Position numbers and translations under genes: made by a program
NCBI GenBank assembly: GCA_004294095.1
Contig: RDZR01000032.1
Location: 1 to 64,000, forward strand
Source: Verrucomicrobiota bacterium
GTDB taxonomy: Bacteria; Verrucomicrobiota; Verrucomicrobiia; Verrucomicrobiales; Akkermansiaceae
Reading direction: 5' to 3'
DNA length: 64,000 nucleotides
In this document: positions 30,512 through 64,000 of the stretch, in pieces
Layout: each line of letters opens with the position of its first letter
Numbering within the stretch: the first letter of the stretch is position 1
Notes under the pieces: model-generated
Told to the model about the DNA's origin: nothing
Database searches by the model: none
What the model saw: the letters and a program-made list of their open reading frames with translations, nothing else

Positions 30512-31594
30512 ATGTCCGAGCACCAGGTCCTTGACCATGTTGATCAATACCTCTCCTTAGGCCGCGAATATCAATGTTCCGACCTTCATTTGCCCACCGC
30601 ATATCCGCCGGCATGGCGTCGCTTCGGGCAACTTTCTCCGATTTGGGATGATCATCCACCTTTGGCAGCTAAAGACACCGAGCGCCTCGCAAAATCATTC
30701 CTCACGGATGTTGAATGGACTCGTTTGCAAGAAAAAGGCGACATCGATTTTGCCTACTCATCAGTCAATGGACGCTACCGCGCATCCGTGGTCAAGCAAC
30801 GCTTAGGATACGACATGGTTTTCCGAATCATCGATAATTCCGTGCGATCGCTCGAAGAGATCGGCCTACCTCTCGAACACATTCTTCCACTTACTCGCTA
30901 TCAGAATGGTCTCGTCTTGGTGACGGGATCTGTCGGCTCAGGGAAATCCACCACGCTGGCGGCACTCGTGGACTTCATCAATCGGGACCGCGAAGACCAC
31001 ATTCTCACGTTGGAAGACCCGATCGAATACGTCATCGCCTCCAAAAACTGCCACGTGAACCAGCGCGAAGTGCACACCCACACCGAGTCTTTCGCAAAGG
31101 CATTGCGCGGTGCCCTGCGGGAAGATCCGGACGTCATCATGGTCGGAGAAATGCGTGACTTGGAGACGATCCAACTCGCGCTAACCGCGGCCGAAACGGG
31201 CCACTTAGTGTTAGGGACTTTGCATACAGGAAATGCTCCGCGCACGCTTGACCGTGTGCTCGATGTTTTCCCAACTGATCAGCGCGATCAAATTCGCATC
31301 ATGGTCTCTGAATCATTGCGGGGCGTTCTTTCTCAGCAACTTGTCCCACGCGCAGATGGAAATGGACGAGTGGTGGCGCTCGAACTGTTAGTCAATACCG
31401 CTGCTGTGGCCAACTGCATTCGCGAAGGTAAAACATTCATGCTTCCGGGTGTGATGCAAACCGGCAAAAACGTTGGCATGATCACGATGGATGAATCATT
31501 ACGTCGGCTTTACGTCGATGGCATCATCAGCCGTGAAGACTTGCTTTTCCGCTCCGAAGATAAAGGTGCCATGCGTGCATTCCTTGAGTCTTAA
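30512..31594 (+). CDS. PilT/PilU-family type IV pilus retraction ATPase, first copy
   Basis: The 360-residue hexameric secretion ATPase has Walker A GSVGSGKSTT near residue 139, the Asp box ILTLEDPIEYV near 164, Walker B DPDVIMVGEMRD near 206 and the His box GTLHTGNAPRTLDRV near 236. VANCIREGKT near 302 is the PilT-type C-terminal signature. Such ATPases pull in type IV pili for twitching and DNA uptake. A second, diverged copy follows 45 bases later. No pilus assembly gene lies next to them. Confidence 0.9.
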   Translation: MSEHQVLDHVDQYLSLGREYQCSDLHLPTAYPPAWRRFGQLSPIWDDHPPLAAKDTERLAKSFLTDVEWTRLQEKGDIDFAYSSVNGRYRASVVKQRLGYDMVFRIIDNSVRSLEEIGLPLEHILPLTRYQNGLVLVTGSVGSGKSTTLAALVDFINRDREDHILTLEDPIEYVIASKNCHVNQREVHTHTESFAKALRGALREDPDVIMVGEMRDLETIQLALTAAETGHLVLGTLHTGNAPRTLDRVLDVFPTDQRDQIRIMVSESLRGVLSQQLVPRADGNGRVVALELLVNTAAVANCIREGKTFMLPGVMQTGKNVGMITMDESLRRLYVDGIISREDLLFRSEDKGAMRAFLES

Positions 31595-31639: not shown

Positions 31640-32749
31640 ATGGCTCGCATCGATACTTACTTCCGCTACCTCATTCAAAGCAAAGGCTCTGACCTTCATC
31701 TATCAGAAGGTCAACCGCCAAAAATTCGAGTGCATGGTGCGGTCTCCGCCATTCCAGAACAACCTGTCCTCGAAGGCGATGATTTCAAAAATCTGTTAGA
31801 GGAAATTTGTGACCCTGCCGCGTTTGCACGATATCTCGAAAAAGGCGATCTCGACTTTGCCTACGAGATGGATGAAGACTCGCGCTTTCGCTGCAATTAT
31901 CTCAAACAGCAAAATGGACTGGGCGCGGTCTTCCGGCTAATTCCTACCGAGTTGGCATCGTTAGAAGCGCTTGGCGTGCCGGAAATCGTCAAAGAATTCG
32001 GACACATGAGATCAGGTCTTGTGTTGGTGACTGGTCCCACTGGTTCTGGAAAATCGACGACGCTTGCTGCGCTGTTAGATTACATCAACATCAATTTCAA
32101 TCGCCACATCATCACCGTTGAAGAGCCGATCGAGTTTGTGCACTCGAATAAAAGATCCATCATCACGCAACGAGAGGTTCCGATTCAGACCCCATCATTC
32201 GCAGATGGCTTACGAGCCGCCTTGCGCGAAGATTCCGACATCGTGCTCGTGGGTGAAATGCGGGATTTGGAAACCATTTCGCTCGCACTCACCGCCGCAG
32301 AAACTGGGCTTTTGGTCTTCGGCACGCTGCATACCAACAACGCTCGCAAAACGGTGGACCGTATCATTGACGTCTTTCCGGCAGATCAACAATCCCAAGT
32401 CCGCACCATGTTGGCGGCATCGCTGCGCGGAGTCGTCGCTCAATTGTTGTGTAAACGAGTCGATCGTCCAGGCCGCACAGCCGTGCACGAAATCATGTTC
32501 GCGACATCAGCCGTGTCCGCCATCATTCGTGAAGGGGCGACACAAAAGCTCTACGACGTAATTACCGGCGGTAAAAGCGATGGCATGCAATTCATGGACG
32601 AATCGATTTGGTCCAAATTGCGCGAAGGCATGATATCGCCAGAAGAAGCCTACATGAAGGCAATCGATAAAACGCGCTTCAAACGTTTTCTACCGGAAGC
32701 ATCCCAGCATTTGGGTGACGCATCAGGCGAAAATCCACTGACTCACTAA
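31640..32749 (+). CDS. PilT-family type IV pilus retraction ATPase, second copy
   Basis: The 369-residue protein has the canonical PilT start (YFRYLIQSKGSDLHLSEGQPPKIRVHG), Walker A GPTGSGKSTT near residue 132, EEPIEFVH, Walker B SDIVLVGEMRD, the His box GTLHTNNARKTVDRI, and VSAIIREGAT near the C-terminus. It is closer to classical PilT at the N-terminus than the first copy. Tandem pairs often act as PilT and PilU, where one needs the other for retraction. The spacer to the next gene holds two tandem TCTAACA words (32752 and 32762). Confidence 0.9.
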   Translation: MARIDTYFRYLIQSKGSDLHLSEGQPPKIRVHGAVSAIPEQPVLEGDDFKNLLEEICDPAAFARYLEKGDLDFAYEMDEDSRFRCNYLKQQNGLGAVFRLIPTELASLEALGVPEIVKEFGHMRSGLVLVTGPTGSGKSTTLAALLDYININFNRHIITVEEPIEFVHSNKRSIITQREVPIQTPSFADGLRAALREDSDIVLVGEMRDLETISLALTAAETGLLVFGTLHTNNARKTVDRIIDVFPADQQSQVRTMLAASLRGVVAQLLCKRVDRPGRTAVHEIMFATSAVSAIIREGATQKLYDVITGGKSDGMQFMDESIWSKLREGMISPEEAYMKAIDKTRFKRFLPEASQHLGDASGENPLTH

Positions 32750-40508: not shown

Positions 40509-41228
40509 TTAAGGATTCGTCTGAGCCGCCTTATTTTCAAGAGCAGCCTGTTCTCTTGATTCAGCAATCATTTTAACACCTAATTCCCCTTGGCGAAGAT
40601 CTTCTGGCTTGATGATGAAGGCAAGAATGCGAGTTTGGTCCGTGATGTTCCAAACAGAATCGTAAAGGAGCTTGTTGGCTTCTTTTTCAAACGCCATCTG
40701 GACTTGGGTGGCTGCATCTGGCTTTAGATCGGGACGAACTAATACAGGTGTCCAGTTTGCAGGAAGTCGCGCCACTTTTTCACCGCATTTGATGAGAATA
40801 TTGGCTCCAAATGTGTTGAAAATTTTCGCAGATCCCCACCCAAATCCCTGCTGGCTGTCATCTACCACCAATAGCCGTAGTCCGGTTGCCGCTTTTTTGT
40901 CCGGCAAAAGCAAAATCAATGGGCGCGTGATTCCTTGTGGATTGGGAATTACCATGTCCGTATGGGGTAGTGGCGGCTTTGCCGTCGCTGACGGTGTGTC
41001 CAGAGCGCGTAAAATCATCGGCTTGCCTTCCGCTGGCATTGGCAAACGCGAGGTTCTGGATCGCTCACTTAAGTCTTCGATAAGCTGCAATTTTTCACCC
41101 GCTACCCATACCAGCTTCCGCTGGGCCACACTTTCATCCCATGCCAAGATCTTTGCACCTTGCCCGTAAACCGAAGAGACAGCAGTCATTGCACAAAAAA
41201 CAGCGCATAAGGAAATTAATTTTCTCAT
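40509..41228 (-). CDS. Secreted partner protein of the first Verru_Chthon-A-like gene
   Basis: The start is the ATG at 41228 (MRKLISLCAVF, 239 residues); the open frame begins upstream but the signal peptide starts here and ends near VYG-QG. It follows the giant Verru_Chthon-A-like gene by 42 bases. Residues about 118-220 (RLLVVDDSQQGFGWGSAKIFN to AFIIKP) can be aligned by eye with the partial protein at 63380, which follows the second Verru_Chthon-A-like gene in the same way (RLQVVDASPQKFAKGHMMWFN). No known domain is recognised. The constant pairing suggests that the two products work together outside the cytoplasm. Confidence 0.7.
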   Translation of the reverse strand: MRKLISLCAVFCAMTAVSSVYGQGAKILAWDESVAQRKLVWVAGEKLQLIEDLSERSRTSRLPMPAEGKPMILRALDTPSATAKPPLPHTDMVIPNPQGITRPLILLLPDKKAATGLRLLVVDDSQQGFGWGSAKIFNTFGANILIKCGEKVARLPANWTPVLVRPDLKPDAATQVQMAFEKEANKLLYDSVWNITDQTRILAFIIKPEDLRQGELGVKMIAESREQAALENKAAQTNP

Positions 41229-41270
41229 AGGTGAGAGATAATGAACGCCAACGACAAAAAAATGCAAGTC

Positions 41271-44200
41271 TTACAATTCTTCTGGAGCCAATTCACGATA
41301 CGAAACAATCTCAAATCGCCTGCCGAATATGCGATTAACGGTAGATTTCAAGCCAAGAATGGGTGTGTAGGCAGGATCTAACGAATCCACAAATTCTGGA
41401 ACACGCTGCACCACGGCCTCAATCACGACCTTGGCCTTGATCCTATTGGTAGCTGCATCGAATGATTCACCGTAGCCTCGAATCGTGAACGTATCTGAAC
41501 GAGCGGTCAAACGTGGGCCGATTGAGTTAAGAACATCTGCTTGAGTCAAGTAACCAGGAATGGAGACACCGGTGTCTTTGTCTGGCGCGACAAGGTTGTT
41601 GCGCCCCTCCTCCGAATAAATGGTTTCATCGATTTCTTGGTAATTCACATTCGAATTGATGCGGGCCTTCCCTATCGCAGCTTGAATAGCCCCTGCTAAA
41701 CCTTCTTCCGCACCACTCAACTGACGATTGACAAACTCACCCAACGATAGAAAAGGACCGCGTTTTTGGACTTGCTTAACGATCTCAAGTGCAAGGGTAT
41801 TGACCTCAGCACTGGTAAGTCCTCGGTAGCCTTCCCAATTGTCATTCGCTTCATTACGAGGACGACTCATGCGGGAGAAATAGCTCAGGCCTTTGCGAGG
41901 CGGGCCTCCATTATCGACTGTGAAATTAGCATCCTGCAAGCCTGAGAGCAGAGCAGTCCAAGCACCCACACTCATGGAATTTACGTTGAACGCGCCATCT
42001 AACATCAAGTTGCCAGCTATTTTAAGGCAGCCTTCAGGCTGGCTCAGTTCATTCAACAAGGCATCATTCGATTTACCACCCGTGTGAAGGACCATGGAAG
42101 AATTACGAAGAGGAAACTCACTGGGATCATTCATAAAATCCTGCAAAACATTCGTGTAAGGTTTGTTGATTCTGCCATTCTCATCATTCCATGAGTTTTT
42201 ACCACCAGTAGCTGATGGTGAAACGTCAGATGCCACACCCGAGAAAAAGTATTTATCCCATAATGCTTCATTTGCGAGATAAGAAAAGTCAACAACTGGA
42301 AAATCCGTAGTCAGTGTAATCTTATCAACATCTCTGATGCTATCTAATCTAATACTATGACCTGCCTCAATTTTTTTCATTGCGATGGAGCGTGACATAT
42401 ATGGCATCGCCCAACTATTGCCAATCTGGAAAGCCGTCGAGAATGCGCTAGTCGAGATGTCTAAATGTTGAAATCCAGCCAAAGAAAGGAGTGGCGTTTG
42501 CGGCACTTCAAAAAACGGCAAAGATGTTTTGCCCTGCCCGGCTGAATGATTAACTCCGGAATAAGCATTACCATTTCGATCTAGACTAAGCGGAGCATCA
42601 ATGTTGCTAAAGTATGGCTCTAAAACTAAATCATACTGAGGTCCACTTGTTGCCTTGTCAAAGTTGGACAAAATTGGGTTAGTAAATGCGCTTCTTGGAT
42701 TAGTGGTGAAAAGTAGATCCCCCGTCTGAAAAATAGGAGTTCCAGCCGGTAAATTAGAAGTTCCAGCCTTTGCGGTTCGGCGATAATAGGTGATTTTGGC
42801 CAGTGGAATAGACTCAGTTGTAGATAAACGCACAGCGCTACTAGAATCAATTCCGCCCTTTGTAGAAGGCTGCGTGCGACCTTGGCCCCATTCTTTATCT
42901 CGTGGTGATGAAAAATGCATCTCTGAAATTACATTTCTATTACGGTTAACAGGATCTGAAAAACTAAAATTACGTCCATCTTCCATCACAATAAAACTTT
43001 CAAATTTGCCAGCACTATAGCGAATTGCGCCTGAAAATGTATCTAGCTCTTTAAATATATATGGACCACCTTGATGCGCCGCAGTGCCGTCAAACCCATC
43101 TACTCCAGTAATAGAGTCAGCCAAGTGCATTTTGACCGCAATGCCTGAATTAAATCTCAAGTCCGACGAATCTGCGATTGGTATCATATCGAATGTTCTC
43201 TCTAGAATACTAGGTATCCTCTGAAAAGCCTGCAGTCCAGGACTTCTTAGCTGGAATGCTTTTAGCTCACCAGGAGCTAGGCGAATAGGCGCTGGATTAC
43301 TTTTATTCCCATTACTCGATAGATATAAATAAAAGTAAGGCCAGTCAGAACGACCTTCAATCATGCCTGGCTTGGCGTTAAAAAAATGAGTAAGTGTACC
43401 TCCCCCAGGTCTGAAGGTTTTATTCCTTCCGGCGACACCTGATTCTCCTGTCCCTTTTCGAACGATGGCCCAACCTTCATGTCCAAAGGGAAAATCTAGC
43501 AGAGGATAAACCACAAGACCAGGAGATTCAACGGCGACATTGTAAGGATTCCAAATGACAACGACTGGATTGATGACTAAGCAAAATTTGCCGTCTGCGT
43601 TAATTTGTACGCTCATAGTCATCACTAATCGGTCGAGAACAGGCTGCAAAGGTCTATTCGCATTGCCGGGACCAGCCTTCAGATCGTTATAACCTTCTGA
43701 AACCGCAGGATGAACGCCGAGTCGAGTAAATGCTGTCGGTGATCCGTCACCACCATATAAATGGAACGCAGAGCGATAGTGGCTACGAAGAGTATCGAAT
43801 GTCGCTGCTGCTGAGCCAGGGAAATTAACATCTCGCGGCTGACGTGAATAGAGAACTGACACGGTAGTATTCCCATCCTCAGCCATAGGAGTATATAAAG
43901 GAACCTGGCCTTGATAGCTTGGGTTATCACTACTGCGAAATGGGTTATCAAAATCGTTCCATACATCTTGTGCAAACTGGCTGCTCGGCATCTCAAAAGC
44001 AAGGCTGAGATCTACTTTCAAGCCACCGTTGACAACGTCGGTAAGCAATCCACGCGAATCCGTGGTTAAATCATAGCGATAGATGTTCGGATCTTGGGGG
44101 AATGACTGATCTCCACGGAATGCTTCAATCACAGGATCTTCAATTCTAAGTTGGCTTAGTGAAAGCACTCGACTCGCCATTAGATTGAAACCTGCGTTAG

Positions 44201-45014
44201 GTTGCTTCATTCCCGGGGTATTCGCTAGGCTGGGGCGAGGTTGAGCCATCAATACATCGTTAGGATGTGTCAACTGATCGGGTCCACCAATATTGATTTT
44301 CGCCTTGGTATTTTCTTGAATCACGGCATAAGCAAGACGTCCTTGAATGACATTTGCTTTATCCGTAAGATGGATCGGTTCAGCATTGATTGCAAAATGA
44401 TTGGTCGGTTGGCCACTTGCCTGGCCATTCCGTTTGCTGGTAAATAGCTGTGGCCAGTTATCTTTAACTCCCGCTCCTGATTGAACGGCATTCGGCACGG
44501 GTGTGCGATACCAGTTCGAATTTTTCGCATCATTAGGATTTTTTGTAGAAACCAACCAGCGGCGGAATCTATTATTTTTTTCCGTCGCATAATCCTCGAC
44601 CGTTTTATTCATCGGACTCTTTCCCACTTCGGGCGACCAAGAATCCCAAACACCTGCCACGGCATACTGAGCATTGATTTCTTCGCCAATTGCCTTGGGG
44701 GCAGTATTGGAATCCAAGATGCCCGCATCCGCTGTAATCCGGCGATCATCGCCTGCTTCTGATTGAAGAGCAGAGAGTGCCAGCATCACGGCCAGCCTTG
44801 CATTCGCACGCGCCTCAGCCAAAGATTGGCTCTGAGAGGAGGTGCGCAAGGTGATGGATGAAAGTGAAAGGAGACCTACCGCGATCACCGTCAGCAAAAT
44901 CATCAATGTCAAGGTGACAATGAGCGCAAAGCCTTTAGGCTGCTTGCTGGCAGATTTTGTCCGAAAATGAGGCTTCTGCTGCAATGTGATACCTCTAGAG
45001 GGTTTCGTCTTCAT
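41271..45014 (-). CDS. Verru_Chthon cassette protein A-like giant exported protein, copy 1
   Basis: The ATG at 45014 gives 1247 residues; a TTG at 45032 is also in frame. After a basic stretch a prepilin-like segment appears: KGFALIVTLTLMILLTVIAVGLLSLSSITLRTS (about 28-60), with Gly before the hydrophobic helix and no Glu at position 5, as in PilX or GspK. Then comes ARANARLAVMLALSALQ. The long middle has Asn/Ser-rich beta-type sequence. The C-terminus has EIVKQVQKRGPFLSLGEFVNRQL and QADVLNSIGPRL.ARSDTFTIRGYGES, resembling GspK. The family is known from Verrucomicrobiota. The second copy lies at 59736. Confidence 0.8.
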   Translation of the reverse strand: MKTKPSRGITLQQKPHFRTKSASKQPKGFALIVTLTLMILLTVIAVGLLSLSSITLRTSSQSQSLAEARANARLAVMLALSALQSEAGDDRRITADAGILDSNTAPKAIGEEINAQYAVAGVWDSWSPEVGKSPMNKTVEDYATEKNNRFRRWLVSTKNPNDAKNSNWYRTPVPNAVQSGAGVKDNWPQLFTSKRNGQASGQPTNHFAINAEPIHLTDKANVIQGRLAYAVIQENTKAKINIGGPDQLTHPNDVLMAQPRPSLANTPGMKQPNAGFNLMASRVLSLSQLRIEDPVIEAFRGDQSFPQDPNIYRYDLTTDSRGLLTDVVNGGLKVDLSLAFEMPSSQFAQDVWNDFDNPFRSSDNPSYQGQVPLYTPMAEDGNTTVSVLYSRQPRDVNFPGSAAATFDTLRSHYRSAFHLYGGDGSPTAFTRLGVHPAVSEGYNDLKAGPGNANRPLQPVLDRLVMTMSVQINADGKFCLVINPVVVIWNPYNVAVESPGLVVYPLLDFPFGHEGWAIVRKGTGESGVAGRNKTFRPGGGTLTHFFNAKPGMIEGRSDWPYFYLYLSSNGNKSNPAPIRLAPGELKAFQLRSPGLQAFQRIPSILERTFDMIPIADSSDLRFNSGIAVKMHLADSITGVDGFDGTAAHQGGPYIFKELDTFSGAIRYSAGKFESFIVMEDGRNFSFSDPVNRNRNVISEMHFSSPRDKEWGQGRTQPSTKGGIDSSSAVRLSTTESIPLAKITYYRRTAKAGTSNLPAGTPIFQTGDLLFTTNPRSAFTNPILSNFDKATSGPQYDLVLEPYFSNIDAPLSLDRNGNAYSGVNHSAGQGKTSLPFFEVPQTPLLSLAGFQHLDISTSAFSTAFQIGNSWAMPYMSRSIAMKKIEAGHSIRLDSIRDVDKITLTTDFPVVDFSYLANEALWDKYFFSGVASDVSPSATGGKNSWNDENGRINKPYTNVLQDFMNDPSEFPLRNSSMVLHTGGKSNDALLNELSQPEGCLKIAGNLMLDGAFNVNSMSVGAWTALLSGLQDANFTVDNGGPPRKGLSYFSRMSRPRNEANDNWEGYRGLTSAEVNTLALEIVKQVQKRGPFLSLGEFVNRQLSGAEEGLAGAIQAAIGKARINSNVNYQEIDETIYSEEGRNNLVAPDKDTGVSIPGYLTQADVLNSIGPRLTARSDTFTIRGYGESFDAATNRIKAKVVIEAVVQRVPEFVDSLDPAYTPILGLKSTVNRIFGRRFEIVSYRELAPEEL

Positions 45015-45336
45015 AAATTTCTTGGGGTTCAAAGGGTTTTTAAAAGCTCCGATTGGGCGCGAATGCTTGTGATAAGGAAAACTTGGATTGCAAATGTAAA
45101 TACGTCAAGTGGTCTTTTGCAAACTTTCTCAAAAATGTGCGCTGTGCGAAAAGAATGCAAAATAAGTCATGCGCGAGTTCTCCGTGCGATGTAAATCGTT
45201 GAGAATGCTGATGAGGAACGACTTTATTGAATCTTAAATTTAGACAAAAATTCACCATCCACAGCAGAACTTCCTATTCCCACAAAATTTTTCGTCCTAG
45301 GGTTGCAGGATTCTTCTCCGGCGCGTAGTAAAAGGC
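45015..45336. other. Divergent spacer between the Verru_Chthon-A-like gene and sppA
   Basis: This 322-base spacer contains no credible gene. It must hold promoters for both sides, but I see no clear -35/-10 pair, palindrome or hairpin. It is A/T-rich and contains no TGTTAGA word. Confidence 0.4.
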
Positions 45337-51208: not shown

Positions 51209-52429
51209 TTATTTTGTGATAGATTTCAGATAAGCGATGATCTGCTGCAATTGCTCGTCAGAAAGTCGGCCTTCGTAACTAGGCATCGCCGCCGCGTAGC
51301 CATGCACAATCTGTGAATGCGGCTTGAGAATGGAATCGATCACATACGCTTCATCGACGACGACGGAAGAACCATCGATTAACTTTTGTGTCGATCCCCA
51401 AATTCCATCCAACTCAGGAGCAATTTGCGCCGAGCCTTGCATATGGCAAGCCGCGCAACCCTGCGCAAGAAACACTTGTTTCCCCGCAGCGATTTGAGGG
51501 TCCACTTGGGCACTCGCTTCCGCCTGCATCGAGCGTGGCGGATTGAGAAAAAATGCAATCAATCCAGAACCTAACAGAAAAACACCCACGCAACTCACCA
51601 ACCAAAAACGAAAATAATAGCGCGTATTCATCAAGTGCTTAATCGCCATCAATGCGATGATCAAAACCATCAATATCGGCACTTTATTTTCCGCAGCATG
51701 CAGTGCAGGAAAATGCGCACTCAACATCAGAAAAATCACGGGAAACGTCATGTAGTGGTTATGCAAAGAACGCGACTTTGCATTTTTTGCTAATTGCAAA
51801 TCATGATTTCCACCCTCTTTCAGCGTGCGCATGAATCGATGCTGATTTTTGATAATGTGAAAAAAAACGTTGGCCGACATGAACGTCCCCATCATCGCTC
51901 CAATTTGTAAAAACAAGGCACGGCCATTAAAAATCATGCCGAAGGCAATCGCCGCCGCGATCAAAAATGCGAACGAAGCGATGATCCCTAACAGCATATT
52001 TTTTCCCAAAGGCGATCGCCAGATAAGATCATAAATCACCCATCCGCCGACGATGCCCGCCACACTCAAAACGACGGCCCATCTTGCTGTTAGATCAGTC
52101 CGCGTGCTATCGAGCAGGCTCGATCCATTCACATAAAACAACGCTGCTAACAGAAGCGCGCCGGTAATCCACGTGGTGTAAGATTGCCATTTGAACCAGT
52201 GAAGCCTCTCAGGAATCGCATCGGCATGCATCACACGTTTTTCCAAATGAAAGACCCCTCCGCCGTGCAGCATGTCCAGCTCTCCCAGCAAGTCTTTATC
52301 CTGATCTTTCTTGATCATATTGAGCTCCATCCATGTGAAAAGCAGCGAATTCCCAATCCACATGATCCCGGCAATGACGTGCACAAATCGGAAAATCACT
52401 TGGAACCATTCAATCAATTGGGAATGCAT
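51209..52429 (-). CDS. PuuD-type membrane urate hydroxylase with cytochrome c domain
   Basis: The 406-residue protein has eight or so membrane segments of the Urate_ox_N family (FVHVIAGIMWIGNSLLFTWMELNM at the start; HWFKWQSYTTWITG; HNHYMTFPVIFLMLS) and a C-terminal cytochrome c domain. The latter has haem motif CAACH near residue 327 and a Met ligand probably in AAMPSYEG. PuuD oxidises urate and passes electrons to the respiratory chain. No other purine-catabolic gene is near. A different substrate in this phylum cannot be ruled out. Confidence 0.82.
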   Translation of the reverse strand: MHSQLIEWFQVIFRFVHVIAGIMWIGNSLLFTWMELNMIKKDQDKDLLGELDMLHGGGVFHLEKRVMHADAIPERLHWFKWQSYTTWITGALLLAALFYVNGSSLLDSTRTDLTARWAVVLSVAGIVGGWVIYDLIWRSPLGKNMLLGIIASFAFLIAAAIAFGMIFNGRALFLQIGAMMGTFMSANVFFHIIKNQHRFMRTLKEGGNHDLQLAKNAKSRSLHNHYMTFPVIFLMLSAHFPALHAAENKVPILMVLIIALMAIKHLMNTRYYFRFWLVSCVGVFLLGSGLIAFFLNPPRSMQAEASAQVDPQIAAGKQVFLAQGCAACHMQGSAQIAPELDGIWGSTQKLIDGSSVVVDEAYVIDSILKPHSQIVHGYAAAMPSYEGRLSDEQLQQIIAYLKSITK

Positions 52430-59735: not shown

Positions 59736-62700
59736 ATGAAATACATTGCAAACTATGAATCGTTTCCTTTCAGAAAAAGGAATCGTTTCTTTTTCGTATT
59801 GCGTTTTTTAGGAGTTTCGCGAAAATCTAACAATTATCTGTTAAGAAGGAGAAAAAATGTCGAGCGAGGATTTGCCTTGGTGGTGACCTTGAGCTTGATG
59901 ATTTTGCTCACGGTGATCGCGGTGGGAATGTTATCGCTGAGTGCGATCACCCTGCGGACATCCTCGGCAAGTTCCGATGCGATGCAGGCGCGGGCGAATG
60001 CGAGGATGGCATTGATGTTGGCGATTGGCCAATTGCAGAAGCAAACGGGGCTGGACACGCGGGTTACAGCGCGAGCTGATTTATTGAATCAAAATCACGG
60101 AATGGTCATCGGTGCATGGAAAAGCTGGGAGGGAGCAAATCACGGCACGGATGGCAGGCCGGTGGCACCGGATTACGCGCAGGAGAAGCAGGATCGTTTT
60201 TTAGGCTGGTTGGCATCGCAGACGCCGGATCAGATGGGGCAGATTGGCCAGCCACCGAACACGGCCAAGCGGCGAGATACGGTGGAGTTGTTAGGTGAGC
60301 ACAGCGTGGGAAATGGTCAGGCGCAGCAAAGCAAACAAATCCACTTGCTGCCGATCCAGCTGCATTCCAAAGGTGCCTATGCGTGGTGGGTGAGTGGGGA
60401 AAATCAGAAAGCGCGCATTCCGCAGTTAGAGCGGAATCAAGCGACGAGTCCCGGGCAGGTGGCATCGCGGGCGAAGTCGAGCTTGGCGGTCGATCCTTCG
60501 GTTTTTCGATTGAATTCGCTTTTGGACCAACCTGAGCAAGTCATGTGGGCGCCGCTTCTGGAGCAGGTTGATTTCATCGCAGATGCGGGTGGACAAAAAG
60601 TTTCTCAGGAATTTTGTCATGATTTATCAGCCGTCTCCAGAGGGCTCTTGACCAATACGGCGACGGGTGGTTGGAGAAAAGACATCTCTCTACTCACGGA
60701 AAACTGGGCAATGCTGGGATCCTCGCGCTTGCCGATGTTCCGAGTGAGACCATGGCAAGACATCCAATCTAACAAACCAACTCCAAGCGATGCCTTACCG
60801 AGCCGGTCTTTGCTCTATCCATGGTCGGCCTATCGCAACGTGGTCAACACCGCGCTGGAGAGGCAAGGCGCAATCGCGAGTTGGGCAAATTTGATGCATC
60901 ACGCAACGGCTTACAAGCTAGGCCAGCATCCATCAGGTGCGGCGGTGGGTAGCATTCCGCTGCAATTTAGCGATTACGCGGCAACTCAATCTAGCGGATT
61001 GTATGATTACACGCATCGCAAACGGATTTATCCAGTGATTGCCAGAATCCAGTGGCTTTTTTCCCACTGGTCTGCCCGCGTCAGCAAGCCTGCCACCGGT
61101 GAAGGGCAACCACCCGAGGAAGGCTATGAACCCCGCTTGCTGATGACGCCGATCATCACCATGTGGAATCCCTACAATTTAAATATCTCAGTCAATCCGT
61201 TCAATTTAAACGTGCCGAAACCTATTCCAGTGGCGATGAAACTTCAGGTCTCTGGCAACGATAAGCCGATGGATAAGTTTATGCCGCTGACTGGGAATCG
61301 CTCAATTGATAGGAATCGTAAATCATTAGCTCCGGGAACTGAGACTTACTTGTATCGTATTGACGAAAGTTTTAACCTTGGGCCAGGCGCGACAAAAGTT
61401 TTTAGCCCGGAAGCGATGGATGTGTTGGCGACCAATAACAATGGAGTCAATAACGAGGCCAATCGTTTGAGATTAAAACAAGGGTTGCGTCTCAATGGTG
61501 GCAATTATTTTCCTATCGTGGATAAAGATGGCGCGATTATTTTTGCAAAAGCAGATGCAGAAATCACGGTGGAGGCGAGCTTCGATGTCGTTTTCCGAGA
61601 AACCGTTGGCGACGTCACTGTGCCTCGTGGGGTCGGCATCTATTTGGACGTTGCCGAAGGAAAAATCGCATCTTCGGTTTACCGGATGAGTTACTCGATC
61701 AGTGACGTTAGCGAGATATGGGAGCAAATTGCGGGCTTAGCAAAGTCCACCCCATTAGGTTCGTTGGCCAGTAGCCCGCAGCCATTTATGTCCACTTTAT
61801 TTGGCGCGAGGATGGCGAGCAATACGCAGATTCCAGCCAAAGGGTTCGTGCAATCCAGCCCGCTGGTCAATTTCATATCCATGGGTGTGCGCAATAACGG
61901 AATCAACAACTACATGGCCAAATATCGGGGATCGAATCAACCGGTGAATTCGCCATTTGACTTCAGTTCTCAGCCGCTCACTGCGTTTGATAGTATCTTG
62001 CCCAATGCGAATGATGCTCAACAGACTGGCTACATCATCACCGGATTCAATGCAGATAGCGGCTTGCCACGCTGCGTCGTCGCTGAAGTTCCCGCACGCC
62101 CGCTGCAATCGCTCGGCGAGCTTACTCATTGGGATGCGCGTTTTGGCAATCCAGTGCCGCCGTTTGCTTTTAACATCATTGGAAATAGCGATGCCACGCC
62201 GTTACTTCCATCCAATGCGGTGGCGAATGCGGCTCCGGGGACCACTGTTGAAACGAATCTCCAGCATGATGACTCGTATTGCACCAATCACGTATTGTTT
62301 GATGATTGGTTTATCTCATCCATCGCACCAGATCCGGAAAATTTCGGCAGCGCTGGGCGTGATATGCAGGGCGTCTTCACGGACTTCGTTTCGATGAACG
62401 CGCCTTTGCCCAATCGTGCTTATCGCAGCATTGCCAAAGACATGCATGCCACGCTCAGTAGTGGCGATGGAGCCACGCAAATTTTTAATCAACATGTCAA
62501 TCAACCGGATGCATGGAAGACGATTGCCTCGCGGCTGGAAGTGGATGGCATGTTTAATGTGAACTCAACTTCCATCGCTGCGTGGCGTGCATTGTTAGGC
62601 CATGCTCGCCAGCAAGTCACTCCCTACATGCAACCCAATGCTGCGGGCGCATCCGTTCAATTATCGTCGCCAGAAGATTATGCGTTTTCGCGCTTCAGCG

Positions 62701-63341
62701 TCGCAGGTAGCCCAGAATCTTCGATCCCCACGAGCGATGGACTTCCAGAAGGAAATCAATTCTCTGGCTACAGAAAATTGGATGATGCTGCGCTCGATTT
62801 TTTGGCAAATGAAATCGTCAAACAAGTGCGCAAGCGTGGTCCATTTTTATCTCTAGCAGAATTTGTCAATCGCCAGCTAAGCACGGATGACAATCTAGCA
62901 CTTGCCGGTGCGGTCCAATCTGCACTGTATGAGTTAGAGAAAAGTGGCAATCGTGCCTACAGCGTTTTGAAAAACCCGAATCTCACTCGTGCTGCCGGAG
63001 AGAAGCGCTATGATTATCTTTACTCTGAAGCCGCTAAAGGAAATAGTGCGTATGGTCTTCCCGGATGGATACGCCAAGCCGATGTGCTCAGCCCGATTGC
63101 GCCGATTCTATCTGCTAGAGATGACACATTCACGATCCGCGCTTATGGAGACTCGCGTGATTCTAACGGAAAAATTCTTGCCCGCGCTGTTTGTGAAGCA
63201 GTGGTCACGCGCAGCCGCGAATTTGTGGATCCGGCCGATGATGCTGAGACCAGCACGTTGCCCGTTTCTTTGCCCAACCAAGTTTTTGGCAGACGCTATG
63301 AAATTATCTCGATGCGCTGGCTGCAACCGTCGGAGGTTTGA
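59736..63341 (+). CDS. Verru_Chthon cassette protein A-like giant exported protein, copy 2
   Basis: The 1201-residue protein has a basic, aromatic leader of about 44 residues (ending RRRKNVERG), then FALVVTLSLMILLTVIAVGMLSLSAITLRTSS, nearly the same helix as copy 1 at 41271. ARANARMALMLAIGQLQ follows. Conserved C-terminal blocks are EIVKQVRKRGPFLSLAEFVNRQLS, IRQADVLSPIAPILSARDDTFTIRAYGDS and VFGRRYEIIS. The middle differs from copy 1. I take it as a very large PilX/GspK-like minor pseudopilin. A partner gene starts 38 bases later. Confidence 0.82.
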   Translation: MKYIANYESFPFRKRNRFFFVLRFLGVSRKSNNYLLRRRKNVERGFALVVTLSLMILLTVIAVGMLSLSAITLRTSSASSDAMQARANARMALMLAIGQLQKQTGLDTRVTARADLLNQNHGMVIGAWKSWEGANHGTDGRPVAPDYAQEKQDRFLGWLASQTPDQMGQIGQPPNTAKRRDTVELLGEHSVGNGQAQQSKQIHLLPIQLHSKGAYAWWVSGENQKARIPQLERNQATSPGQVASRAKSSLAVDPSVFRLNSLLDQPEQVMWAPLLEQVDFIADAGGQKVSQEFCHDLSAVSRGLLTNTATGGWRKDISLLTENWAMLGSSRLPMFRVRPWQDIQSNKPTPSDALPSRSLLYPWSAYRNVVNTALERQGAIASWANLMHHATAYKLGQHPSGAAVGSIPLQFSDYAATQSSGLYDYTHRKRIYPVIARIQWLFSHWSARVSKPATGEGQPPEEGYEPRLLMTPIITMWNPYNLNISVNPFNLNVPKPIPVAMKLQVSGNDKPMDKFMPLTGNRSIDRNRKSLAPGTETYLYRIDESFNLGPGATKVFSPEAMDVLATNNNGVNNEANRLRLKQGLRLNGGNYFPIVDKDGAIIFAKADAEITVEASFDVVFRETVGDVTVPRGVGIYLDVAEGKIASSVYRMSYSISDVSEIWEQIAGLAKSTPLGSLASSPQPFMSTLFGARMASNTQIPAKGFVQSSPLVNFISMGVRNNGINNYMAKYRGSNQPVNSPFDFSSQPLTAFDSILPNANDAQQTGYIITGFNADSGLPRCVVAEVPARPLQSLGELTHWDARFGNPVPPFAFNIIGNSDATPLLPSNAVANAAPGTTVETNLQHDDSYCTNHVLFDDWFISSIAPDPENFGSAGRDMQGVFTDFVSMNAPLPNRAYRSIAKDMHATLSSGDGATQIFNQHVNQPDAWKTIASRLEVDGMFNVNSTSIAAWRALLGHARQQVTPYMQPNAAGASVQLSSPEDYAFSRFSVAGSPESSIPTSDGLPEGNQFSGYRKLDDAALDFLANEIVKQVRKRGPFLSLAEFVNRQLSTDDNLALAGAVQSALYELEKSGNRAYSVLKNPNLTRAAGEKRYDYLYSEAAKGNSAYGLPGWIRQADVLSPIAPILSARDDTFTIRAYGDSRDSNGKILARAVCEAVVTRSREFVDPADDAETSTLPVSLPNQVFGRRYEIISMRWLQPSEV

Positions 63342-63379
63342 TTTCCAAAGTGCTTTACTAACATGATTGATCCATCCGA

Positions 63380-64000
63380 ATGAGACTCCTTGTCATTTTA
63401 CTCACCCTCACGTTGCCATCCATGATGATGGCAGAACCTGCCGCCAATCGCACATGCCGTATCATATTTCTCAAAGCACCAGCTGACGCGCCAACGCGCC
63501 TGCAGCTATTCGATGGGGTGCAATCTCAAGAAGTCGAGCTACCGAGGATGAACTTCTCTCCGGTCGTGCAAATTTCTGCGGCGACGAATACGATTTTCAT
63601 GTTAGATAGGGCCATTACTGATGCCAAGCTGTTGCCCGTGGGCTCGCCACAGGTCGCGATTGGACAGCAGGTTAAAGATTTCTATCTGTTAGTTTCGCCA
63701 GATCCGAAGAACCAGATCATCCCGATCCGTTTGCAGGTTGTGGATGCAAGCCCGCAGAAATTTGCCAAAGGCCACATGATGTGGTTTAATTTGAGTGAAA
63801 ATTTGGTTTCTGGGAAAATTGGATCTCAAGTTTTGAAAATGGCTCCTGGCACTAAAAAATTGCTCGATCCACCTTCGAATCAGTTAGGCGAATATGGCGT
63901 TTTATTAAATTTTCAGATGAAAGGCGAAGAGAAACTTTATCCACTCACGCAAACGCGCTGGCGGCACGATCCCGAGTCCAGAGCGGTGATTTTTATTATC
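63380..64000 (+). CDS. Secreted partner protein of the second Verru_Chthon-A-like gene (partial)
   Basis: The frame from ATG 63380 is open to the window end (207 residues visible, no stop). A signal peptide (MRLLVILLTLTLPSMMMA) ends near MMA-EP. The region IRLQVVDASPQKFAKGHMMWFNLSENLVSGKIGSQVLKM to AVIFII aligns by eye with the protein at 40509-41228. Both follow a Verru_Chthon-A-like gene at about 40 bases. Family and function are unknown. Confidence 0.7.
   Translation, partial: MRLLVILLTLTLPSMMMAEPAANRTCRIIFLKAPADAPTRLQLFDGVQSQEVELPRMNFSPVVQISAATNTIFMLDRAITDAKLLPVGSPQVAIGQQVKDFYLLVSPDPKNQIIPIRLQVVDASPQKFAKGHMMWFNLSENLVSGKIGSQVLKMAPGTKKLLDPPSNQLGEYGVLLNFQMKGEEKLYPLTQTRWRHDPESRAVIFII

What the first reader, a model, noticed from the sequence alone, without database searches (positions are those of the whole stretch)
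40509..45014. Module of a giant pseudopilin-like protein plus a small secreted partner, found twice
The giant proteins at 41271-45014 and 59736-63341 share the prepilin-like helix and C-terminal blocks, and each is followed at about 40 bases by a small secreted protein. These partners (40509-41228 and 63380 onward) also align by eye (RLLVVDDSQQGF/RLQVVDASPQKF, ending AFIIKP/AVIFII). The known Verru_Chthon cassette has proteins A to D; here B, C and D are absent and a different partner is constant. This looks like a two-gene variant that has not, to my knowledge, been described.
Basis: partly seen in the sequence, partly recalled or inferred. Interest (0 to 1): 0.65.

Follow-up and report, generated by a model that had tools for sequence, protein, structure and literature searches.

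The report
Giant pilus-tip protein with secreted partner
Relatives of Akkermansia carry up to about twenty copies of a two-gene module, a giant protein built like the tip of a secretion pilus plus a small secreted partner, which may act as interchangeable tips for their surface machines.

Summary
The window has two gene pairs, each a giant prepilin-like protein (A, about 1,200 aa) followed at 42 or 38 bases by a small secreted protein (P, about 230 aa). The pair is conserved: in 79 named Verrucomicrobiota loci plus the window, 73 of 84 testable A genes are followed by P; in three single-contig genomes 41 of 43 A loci are, and all 45 P hits lie beside an A. A and P trees run in parallel.

The interpretation needs correcting. 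A is not Verru_Chthon protein A (24-26 bits against a cut-off of 332; similarity found only in the first helix). Its predicted fold is that of GspK, the Glu5-less minor pseudopilin at the type II secretion tip (Z 10), enlarged by an insertion. P is predicted to be two Ig-like domains. The genome has a T2SS-like locus with its own small GspK, and an Akkermansia-type pilus locus.

Most likely A is a giant alternative tip cap and P its soluble tip partner, working like TcpB-TcpF. A-P contact and the machine used are inferred, not shown. New variant of a known kind.

The parts
40509..41228 (-). P1: small secreted partner (239 aa) with a signal-peptide-like start; two Ig-like beta domains inferred from its relative P2
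   Evidence: profile without window sequences E 1.7e-17; no Pfam/NCBIfam family
41229..41270 (-). 42-base gap between A1 stop and P1 ATG
   Evidence: no terminator-like site listed in the gap
41271..45014 (-). A1: giant GspK-type prepilin-like protein (1247 aa from the ATG at 45014, 1253 aa from the TTG at 45032)
44751..44933 (-). A1 prepilin motif (G at -1, F at +1, no Glu at +5) and following helix
   Evidence: the stretch matched by TIGR02600; GspK model matches here too
41715..41999 (-). A1 C-terminal conserved block (FNVNS ... RGPFLSLGEFVNRQL), GspK-like second-domain motif by eye
   Evidence: likeness of the motif to GspK is recalled, the fold match is (on A2)
59736..63341 (+). A2: giant GspK-type prepilin-like protein (1201 aa)
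   Evidence: model pLDDT 89.8, pTM 0.90; XcpX/GspK Z 10.4/10.0
59868..60050 (+). A2 prepilin motif (G45 at -1) and predicted helix (residues 2-60 of the modelled chain)
62544..62882 (+). A2 C-terminal conserved block (DGMFNVNSTS ... RGPFLSLAEFVNRQLS)
63342..63379 (+). 38-base gap between A2 stop and P2 ATG
63380..64000 (+). P2: small secreted partner, first 207 of 228 aa (ends at contig position 64066, outside the window)
   Evidence: model pLDDT 93.9; profile without window sequences E 2.2e-87

Best explanation
Each pair is a two-gene tip module for a type 4 filament. A is made as a prepilin, cleaved after the conserved glycine, and because it lacks Glu5 and has the GspK fold it caps the tip of a pseudopilus or type IV-like pilus; its large beta-rich insertion forms an enlarged head. 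P is exported by Sec as a soluble protein of two Ig-like domains and docks on the head of its cognate A, as a non-pilin tip subunit or effector. Filament, ATPases and secretin come from the cell's shared T2SS or pilus machine; the many divergent pairs per genome would give that machine different tips. Shown: pairing, parallel evolution, prepilin-like start, predicted folds, presence of machinery genes. Inferred: cleavage, tip position, A-P binding, which machine, and what the head binds.
For: Pairing: 73 of 84 A genes with a readable 3' side; 41 of 43 A loci in three single-contig genomes, 45 of 45 P hits beside an A. Gap -15 to 70 bases in 69 of 73 (start taken as the first Met after -15); by a crude test a hydrophobic signal-like start in 71 of 73 P, small-x-small site after it in 64 of 73, no other membrane-like segment in 73 of 73. 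Parallel trees: Mantel r 0.91 over 92 pairs, 0 of 2,000 shuffles reach it; paralogues inside one genome r 0.94, 0.99 and 0.64. A: no Glu at +5 in 71 of 71 rows; predicted fold matches XcpX 5vtm_X Z 10.4 (218 residues, 3.4 A) and GspK 3ci0_K Z 10.0 (234 of 280 residues, 3.1 A), next row Z 3.7. P: model pLDDT 93.9, two beta domains like the PepT2 extracellular domain (5a9h, Z 11.5, 163 residues). Machinery genes in the own genome: a T2SS-like locus (GspG, further prepilin-like ORFs, small GspK, secretin), five PF00437 ATPases, a GspF-like protein, and relatives of Amuc_1102 and Amuc_1100 with PilM and secretin. PMC10191384 (passages) says tip complexes are capped by a subunit lacking Glu5 and lists non-pilin tip effectors; PMC9565799 (start of abstract and passages) shows a minor pilin binding the secreted protein of its operon.
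Against: No binding evidence: no A-P complex was predicted, and parallel trees also follow from joint inheritance; nearest relatives agree for only 16 of 29 pairs, one of three nearest for 75 of 92. 11 of 84 A genes lack a detectable P. A falls far below the GspK cut-off by sequence (23-25 of 130 bits) and the genome already has a small GspK. No I/J/H-type gene was seen beside the pairs. A head of about 1,150 residues may not pass a secretin. Foldseek alone ranked GspK 12th at E 0.25. A prepilin peptidase was not looked for.
Confidence: 0.5

Rival explanations
1. P is cargo, not a tip subunit: each A is a dedicated carrier that pushes its own P out through a secretin, and P acts free in the medium (closer to TcpF secretion).
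For: P is soluble with a signal-like start and encoded directly 3' of A; TcpF is such a case (PMC9565799, start of abstract and passages).
Against: P is uniform in size (5-95% range 214-258 aa), predicted all beta and with no enzyme family found in 16 members, which suits a binding or structural part better than varied cargo (inference). A flexible N-terminal hook as in TcpF was not tested.
Confidence: 0.2
2. A never enters a filament: it is a membrane-anchored giant periplasmic or surface protein that borrowed a prepilin start, and P is its dedicated chaperone or subunit.
For: No pilin genes were seen beside the window pairs, the neighbours surveyed are mixed, and A is four times the size of GspK.
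Against: The GspK core, helix plus globular part from both chain ends, is predicted, not just a signal.
Confidence: 0.15
3. One reading: a two-gene Verru_Chthon cassette that lost B, C and D and gained P.
For: Both A kinds are giants with a Glu5-less prepilin-like start; TIGR02600 genes are followed by a Glu5-type prepilin ORF in 19 of 24 loci by my reading, so the slot 3' of A is filled in both; by eye the TIGR02600 consensus also shows GspK-like motifs, and the C-terminal comparison gives a weak alignment of like sense (E 0.031).
Against: 24.2 and 25.7 bits against 332.3; hhalign aligns only 64 N-terminal columns, and the C-terminal parts alone reach probability 1.6%; no P hit in the ORFs of 30 TIGR02600 loci.
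Confidence: 0.12
4. Chance neighbours or an annotation artefact.
For: Only two pairs in the own genome, and P1 v P2 alone is a modest match.
Against: The pairing counts above, and 0 of 1,429 control ORFs matching the partner profile.
Confidence: 0.01

Closest known systems
GspK / XcpX (PulK), T2SS minor pseudopilin at the pseudopilus tip (PDB 3ci0_K, 5vtm_X)
   Same: Prepilin-type start without Glu5, predicted core fold (Z 10.0-10.4); the GspK model matches the first 66 residues.
   Different: A is about 1,150 residues mature against 280 in the solved chain; extra part, residues 386-710 of the model weakly like beta domains; sequence far below the GspK cut-off; stands outside the T2SS-like locus, which has its own GspK; paired with a soluble protein.
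Verru_Chthon cassette protein A (TIGR02600)
   Same: Size class, Glu5-less prepilin-like start, many copies per genome (up to 38 first-look candidates).
   Different: No similarity found beyond the first helix except a weak C-terminal alignment; followed by prepilin-like genes and not by P; nearly exclusive genome distribution.
T4b pilus minor pilin plus secreted effector (TcpB-TcpF, CofB-CofJ)
   Same: Tip pilin and soluble secreted protein encoded together; no cross-binding between systems (PMC9565799, passages).
   Different: No sequence match of P to any PDB chain; P predicted as two Ig-like domains; up to about 20 paralogous pairs per genome.
Akkermansia MUL2 type IV-like pilus (amuc_1099-1102)
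   Same: Same family of bacteria; relatives of Amuc_1102 and Amuc_1100 are in the own genome, so it is a candidate machine.
   Different: The window pairs lie on another contig (C38, MUL2-like locus on C79); MUL2 as described is one four-gene locus (PMC13174399, whole text read).
PepT1/PepT2 extracellular domain
   Same: Two tandem Ig-like domains; seven chains with Z 9.9 to 12.2 to the P model.
   Different: Shared arrangement only; no inference of function.

Membership tests
Verru_Chthon cassette protein A (TIGR02600) | whole-protein score above the curated cut-off (332.3 bits) | tested here: not met
   24.2 and 25.7 bits, profile positions 1-61 of 1296 only; 51 of 145 relatives do have a match over the cut-off
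Verru_Chthon cassette protein A (TIGR02600) | homology along the protein | tested here: not met
   hhalign reports 64 N-terminal of 1,131 columns; C-terminal parts alone probability 1.6%, E 0.031
Verru_Chthon cassette | companion prepilins B, C, D (TIGR02598, TIGR02599, TIGR02596; labels recalled) | tested here: inconclusive
   B: no hit in own genome, no positive control; C: only sub-cut-off hits in G000, G004, G049, with G127 positive; D not tested; no Glu5-type prepilin seen beside the pairs by pattern scan
GspK-type minor pseudopilin | prepilin-type start with no Glu at +5 | tested here: met
   no Glu in 71 of 71 rows (rows were picked by a pattern that demands G at -1 and F/A/S at +1 but leaves +5 free); two intact starts that failed the pattern (L073, L124) also lack Glu
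GspK-type minor pseudopilin | GspK fold | tested here: met
   Z 10.4 and 10.0, next row 3.7, on a predicted model; Foldseek alone E 0.25
T2SS GspK equivalog (NF037980) | score above 130 bits | tested here: not met
   24.8 and 23.4 bits. The small T2SS-locus GspK of this genome also scores under the cut-off (51.1 bits)
T2SS GspK equivalog (NF037980) | encoded in the T2SS locus with the other minor pseudopilins | tested here: not met
   the T2SS-like locus is on contig C37 with its own 313-aa GspK; A1 and A2 are on C38
GspK-type minor pseudopilin | position at the filament tip | not testable with these tools
   needs biochemistry or microscopy
T4b pilus secreted effector (TcpF/CofJ) | sequence relationship of P to solved TcpF or CofJ | tested here: inconclusive
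   profile of 16 partners against all PDB chain sequences: 0 hits at E <= 1; I did not check that TcpF and CofJ chains are in that file
T4b pilus secreted effector (works-like) | soluble secreted protein encoded next to a tip-type pilin | tested here: met
   71 of 73 P with signal-like start, 0 of 73 with a further membrane-like segment, by a crude hydropathy test

The most novel reading that the evidence does not exclude
Akkermansiaceae keep a repertoire of interchangeable pilus or pseudopilus heads: up to about twenty A-P pairs per genome, each a giant GspK-type cap with its own secreted co-head, compete for one or two shared filament machines and let a particle-attached glycan feeder change what its filaments bind or export.
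Probability: 0.22. Interest if true: 0.82.

Novelty: new variant of a known kind. Interest (0 to 1): 0.58.

Why it matters
Tip complexes decide what type 4 filaments bind and what T2SS exports, and the tips that are known well are few (recalled). A multicopy family of giant GspK-fold caps, each with a dedicated soluble partner, would give a natural series for testing how tips choose partners and cargo. It also gives a first function hypothesis to two families that Pfam and NCBIfam do not name, in bacteria whose pilus-dependent glycan capture is under study (PMC13174399).

Tried and rejected
Rejected: chance pairing (control); membership of TIGR02600; a fixed cargo gene beside the pairs. For the last, I scanned 54 of the 76 upstream neighbour ORFs found (the shorter or doubtful ones left out by hand); no family recurred in more than 4 of 54, ABC_tran and AAA_21 (25 of 89 families shown). 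The 63 downstream ORFs were not scanned. Of five flanking genes of the window pairs, only the rhodanese had a homologue in the 79 named loci, once. ORFs of about 450 aa after A in five loci were suspected to be long partners; two were tested and are MatE transporters, the other three read alike.

Led nowhere: viral contig scan with P1; PDB sequence searches with P and A profiles; Foldseek alone on A, best E 0.032; promoter and terminator scan, fewer or as many sites as in shuffles; paper searches for 'Verru_Chthon', 'Verru_Chthon cassette' and 'TIGR02600', 0 papers each; four GspK terms together, 0; 'GspK' with 'Verrucomicrobi', 3 papers judged unrelated from the listing; a search on Akkermansia mucin pili, seen as listing only.

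Before the count of 84, 3 A genes cut at the 3' end and 3 unpaired ones with under 500 bases behind them were set aside; two paired ones with less room (L098, L103) were kept, so without them it is 71 of 82. The script counted 40 of 43; one search shows that one miss was my merging error. A further miss (G049:5249944) has a secreted ORF of like layout behind it that the profile does not reach (by eye). In some searches at most 4, 4 and 19 candidates per genome were scored, so presence counts are lower bounds; five of the 11 genomes with A but no P are TIGR02600 genomes with weak A hits (E 4e-6 to 4e-8), probably TIGR02600 proteins. Alignment A4 left out L103 and L112; L073, L121, L123 and the first A of L124 failed the motif pattern. 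The trees used the last 430 residues of A and the last 240 of P; the within-genome test used 10 of 12, 10 of 20 and 9 of 11 A loci.
Full report
1. Observation. A1 (41271-45014, -) and A2 (59736-63341, +) align over two long blocks, E 5e-54 and 2e-38. P1 (40509-41228, -) and P2 (63380 to contig position 64066, +; 228 aa) align with 31 of 106 residues identical, E 6e-6. The gaps between A stop and P start are 42 and 38 bases. Searches of the own genome (2,997,094 bases, 113 contigs, 96.96% complete) found only these two A and two P genes.

2. Is the partner real? In these loci and the window 90 A ORFs were found. Three were cut at the 3' end and three unpaired ones had under 500 bases behind them. 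Of the other 84, 72 have a partner-profile hit directly downstream; L129 was a false miss, so 73 of 84. Two of the 73 (L098, L103) also have under 500 bases behind A; without them it is 71 of 82. All 77 partner hits among 5,030 ORFs lie behind an A: 72 first partners, L129, and four second copies (L102, L105, L109, L122). The A-P gap is -15 to 70 bases in 69 of 73 (start taken as first Met after -15); by a crude hydropathy test 71 of 73 partners have a signal-like start, 64 of 73 a small-x-small site after it, and 0 of 73 another membrane-like segment. A profile from 66 partners without the window sequences finds P2 (E 2.2e-87) and P1 (E 1.7e-17) and none of 1,429 other ORFs of 120-400 aa at E <= 10.

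3. Completeness test. In three single-contig genomes (G004, G049, G067) A and P were searched independently. There are 43 A loci (12, 20, 11) and 45 P hits. 41 A loci have P within 600 bases 3' on the same strand (40 by the first script; one more after correcting a merging error). All 45 P hits lie beside an A; four are extra copies, three behind a pair and one in front of an A. The two unpaired A loci are a 471-base fragment in G067 and one in G049 followed by a secreted ORF of similar layout which the profile misses (by eye). Across 145 related genomes A was found in 92 and P in 83, both in 81, A alone in 11, P alone in 2 (Fisher p 1e-25). Five of the 11 have only weak A hits and carry TIGR02600.

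4. Parallel evolution. Tree distances of A (last 430 residues) and P correlate at r 0.91 over 92 pairs; none of 2,000 shuffles reached it, best 0.24; 75 of 92 pairs share one of their three nearest relatives. Within single genomes, paralogue distances correlate at 0.94 (10 pairs, 0 of 5,000 shuffles), 0.99 (10 pairs, 0 of 5,000) and 0.64 (9 pairs, 63 of 5,000); the single nearest relative agrees in only 16 of 29. A1 and P1 have the same nearest relative, the L220 pair of G067. This shows inheritance as a unit; it does not by itself show contact.

5. Exceptions. Eleven of 84 A genes have no detectable P: L063, L064, L065, L067, the second A of L077, L081, L118, L119, L121, L127 and L134. In L118, L119, L121, L127 and L134 an ORF of 407-470 aa comes next; the two tested (L119, L134) are MatE transporters and the others read alike. 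So A can exist without an adjacent P.

6. What A is. NCBIfam matches only the first 61-66 residues, to TIGR02600 and GspK alike (23-26 bits), in 13 of 14 members each at E <= 0.1; Pfam gives nothing below E 0.2. In 71 aligned rows the residue at +5 is V, I, A, L, M or S, never Glu (rows were picked by a pattern that demands G at -1 and F/A/S at +1 but leaves +5 free). The mature A2 model is confident (pLDDT 89.8, pTM 0.90, 71-row alignment) and begins with a helix of about 60 residues. VIA-align ranks XcpX 5vtm_X (Z 10.4, 218 residues, rmsd 3.4) and GspK 3ci0_K (Z 10.0, 234 of 280 residues, rmsd 3.1) first, the latter spanning the model from residue 30 to its last; the next row is Z 3.7. Foldseek alone had 3ci0_K 12th at E 0.25, so the call rests on the second aligner, and long models are hard for both. 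As the match uses both ends of the chain, A reads as a GspK core with an insertion; residues 386-710 resemble Ig-like and other beta domains weakly (Z 2-3.7).

7. What P is. Pfam shows only two stray single-member hits over 16 members. The P2 model is very confident (pLDDT 93.9, 68-row alignment): two beta domains after the signal region, closest to PepT1/PepT2 extracellular domains (seven chains with Z 9.9 to 12.2; best Foldseek E 1.5e-5). The second domain also resembles many other Ig-like domains. The fold suggests binding or scaffolding rather than catalysis (inference).

8. Relation to the Verru_Chthon cassette. TIGR02600 is over cut-off in 51 of 145 relatives; one of them (G023) is of the window's own family, the rest are other families of the order. 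P is in 3 of those 51 (G023, G093, G104) and in 80 of the other 94 (Fisher p 6e-22). Of 24 such loci, 19 have a Glu5-type prepilin ORF downstream of A by my reading, and no ORF in 30 loci (1,500-base flanks) matches P at E <= 10. Profile comparison of 71 A with 20 TIGR02600 proteins reports only 64 N-terminal columns; the C-terminal parts alone give 48 columns at probability 1.6%, E 0.031. By eye the TIGR02600 consensus also carries GspK-like motifs. So these look like two families of like design, possibly with one distant GspK-like origin.

9. Which machine? The own genome has a T2SS-like locus on contig C37: GspG, three further prepilin-like ORFs (one below Pfam's cut-off), a 313-aa protein with the T2SSK first domain, a very weak T2SSM match below cut-off, and a secretin. 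Five PF00437 ATPases were found: two adjacent on C41, one on C107 and two of 360 and 369 aa in the window; the first C41 one scores best to PilB and GspE models, just under their cut-offs, and C41 also has a GspF-like and a GspG-like protein. That the window's two are PilT-type is inferred from their size. Contig C79 has relatives of Amuc_1102 (E 3.8e-32) and Amuc_1100 (E 5.9e-14), a PilM and a secretin, that is, a MUL2-like locus; PMC13174399 (read whole) describes MUL2 across Akkermansiaceae as a type IV-like pilus for attachment to glycans. A prepilin peptidase was not looked for.

10. Mechanism. PMC10191384 (passages) states that tip complexes of minor pilins are capped by a subunit lacking Glu5, that assembly starts there, and lists non-pilin tip effectors. 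PMC9565799 (start of abstract and passages) shows the minor pilin TcpB binding the secreted TcpF from the same operon. PMC6211770 (passages) places XcpX on top of the T2SS tip complex. A fits the cap and P the effector. Shown here: conserved pair, co-inheritance, predicted folds, motif, machinery genes present. Inferred: cleavage, capping, A-P contact, export route, what the head binds. I put 0.5 on this whole reading.

11. Novelty. Searches for Verru_Chthon, Verru_Chthon cassette and TIGR02600 found no paper; GspK with Verrucomicrobi found 3, unrelated by their listing; Akkermansiaceae with pilin found 4 papers, 3 listed, one relevant; Verrucomicrobi with pseudopilin found 6, of which PMC13274419 (passages) reports 67 homologues of a PulG-like pseudopilin in one Opitutales genome, a parallel expansion of another pilin. 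The library lacks most subscription papers. I file this as a new variant of a known kind.

Noticed in passing
window 30512-31594 and 31640-32749 (+): Two adjacent PF00437 ATPases of 360 and 369 aa, PilT-type by size, suggesting a retractable pilus in this genome.
   Followed up: partly
L036:8075-8908 (contig C38:64074-64907, just past the window): A secreted FGE-sulfatase (SUMF1-like) protein starts 7 bases after P2; no homologue in the ORFs of the 79 named loci, so not a constant third gene.
   Followed up: yes
L102, L105, L109, L122; G004:411454-412113 and 4382555-4383142; G049:3400972-3401310: Some pairs carry a second partner gene in tandem.
   Followed up: no
L077:1148-2035 (-) and L293:3160-4323 (-): A genes followed by secreted ORFs that the partner profile misses but whose layout looks similar by eye; possible very divergent partners.
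   Followed up: no
L118, L119, L121, L127, L134: A lineage, four of five titled Opitutae or Opitutia, keeps A without P before a MatE-like gene.
   Followed up: partly
L135-L158: TIGR02600 genes reach 38 first-look candidates in one genome, and several have long repetitive ORFs, possibly autotransporter-like by eye, directly upstream.
   Followed up: no
window 51209-52429 (-): Urate oxidase N-terminal domain fused to cytochrome c.
   Followed up: no
G000 contigs C8, C7, C112, C37, C13: Scattered prepilin-like starts in frames of about 230-360 codons, seen as weak TIGR02599 hits; apart from the C37 T2SS-like locus, which is a different place, they were not examined.
   Followed up: no
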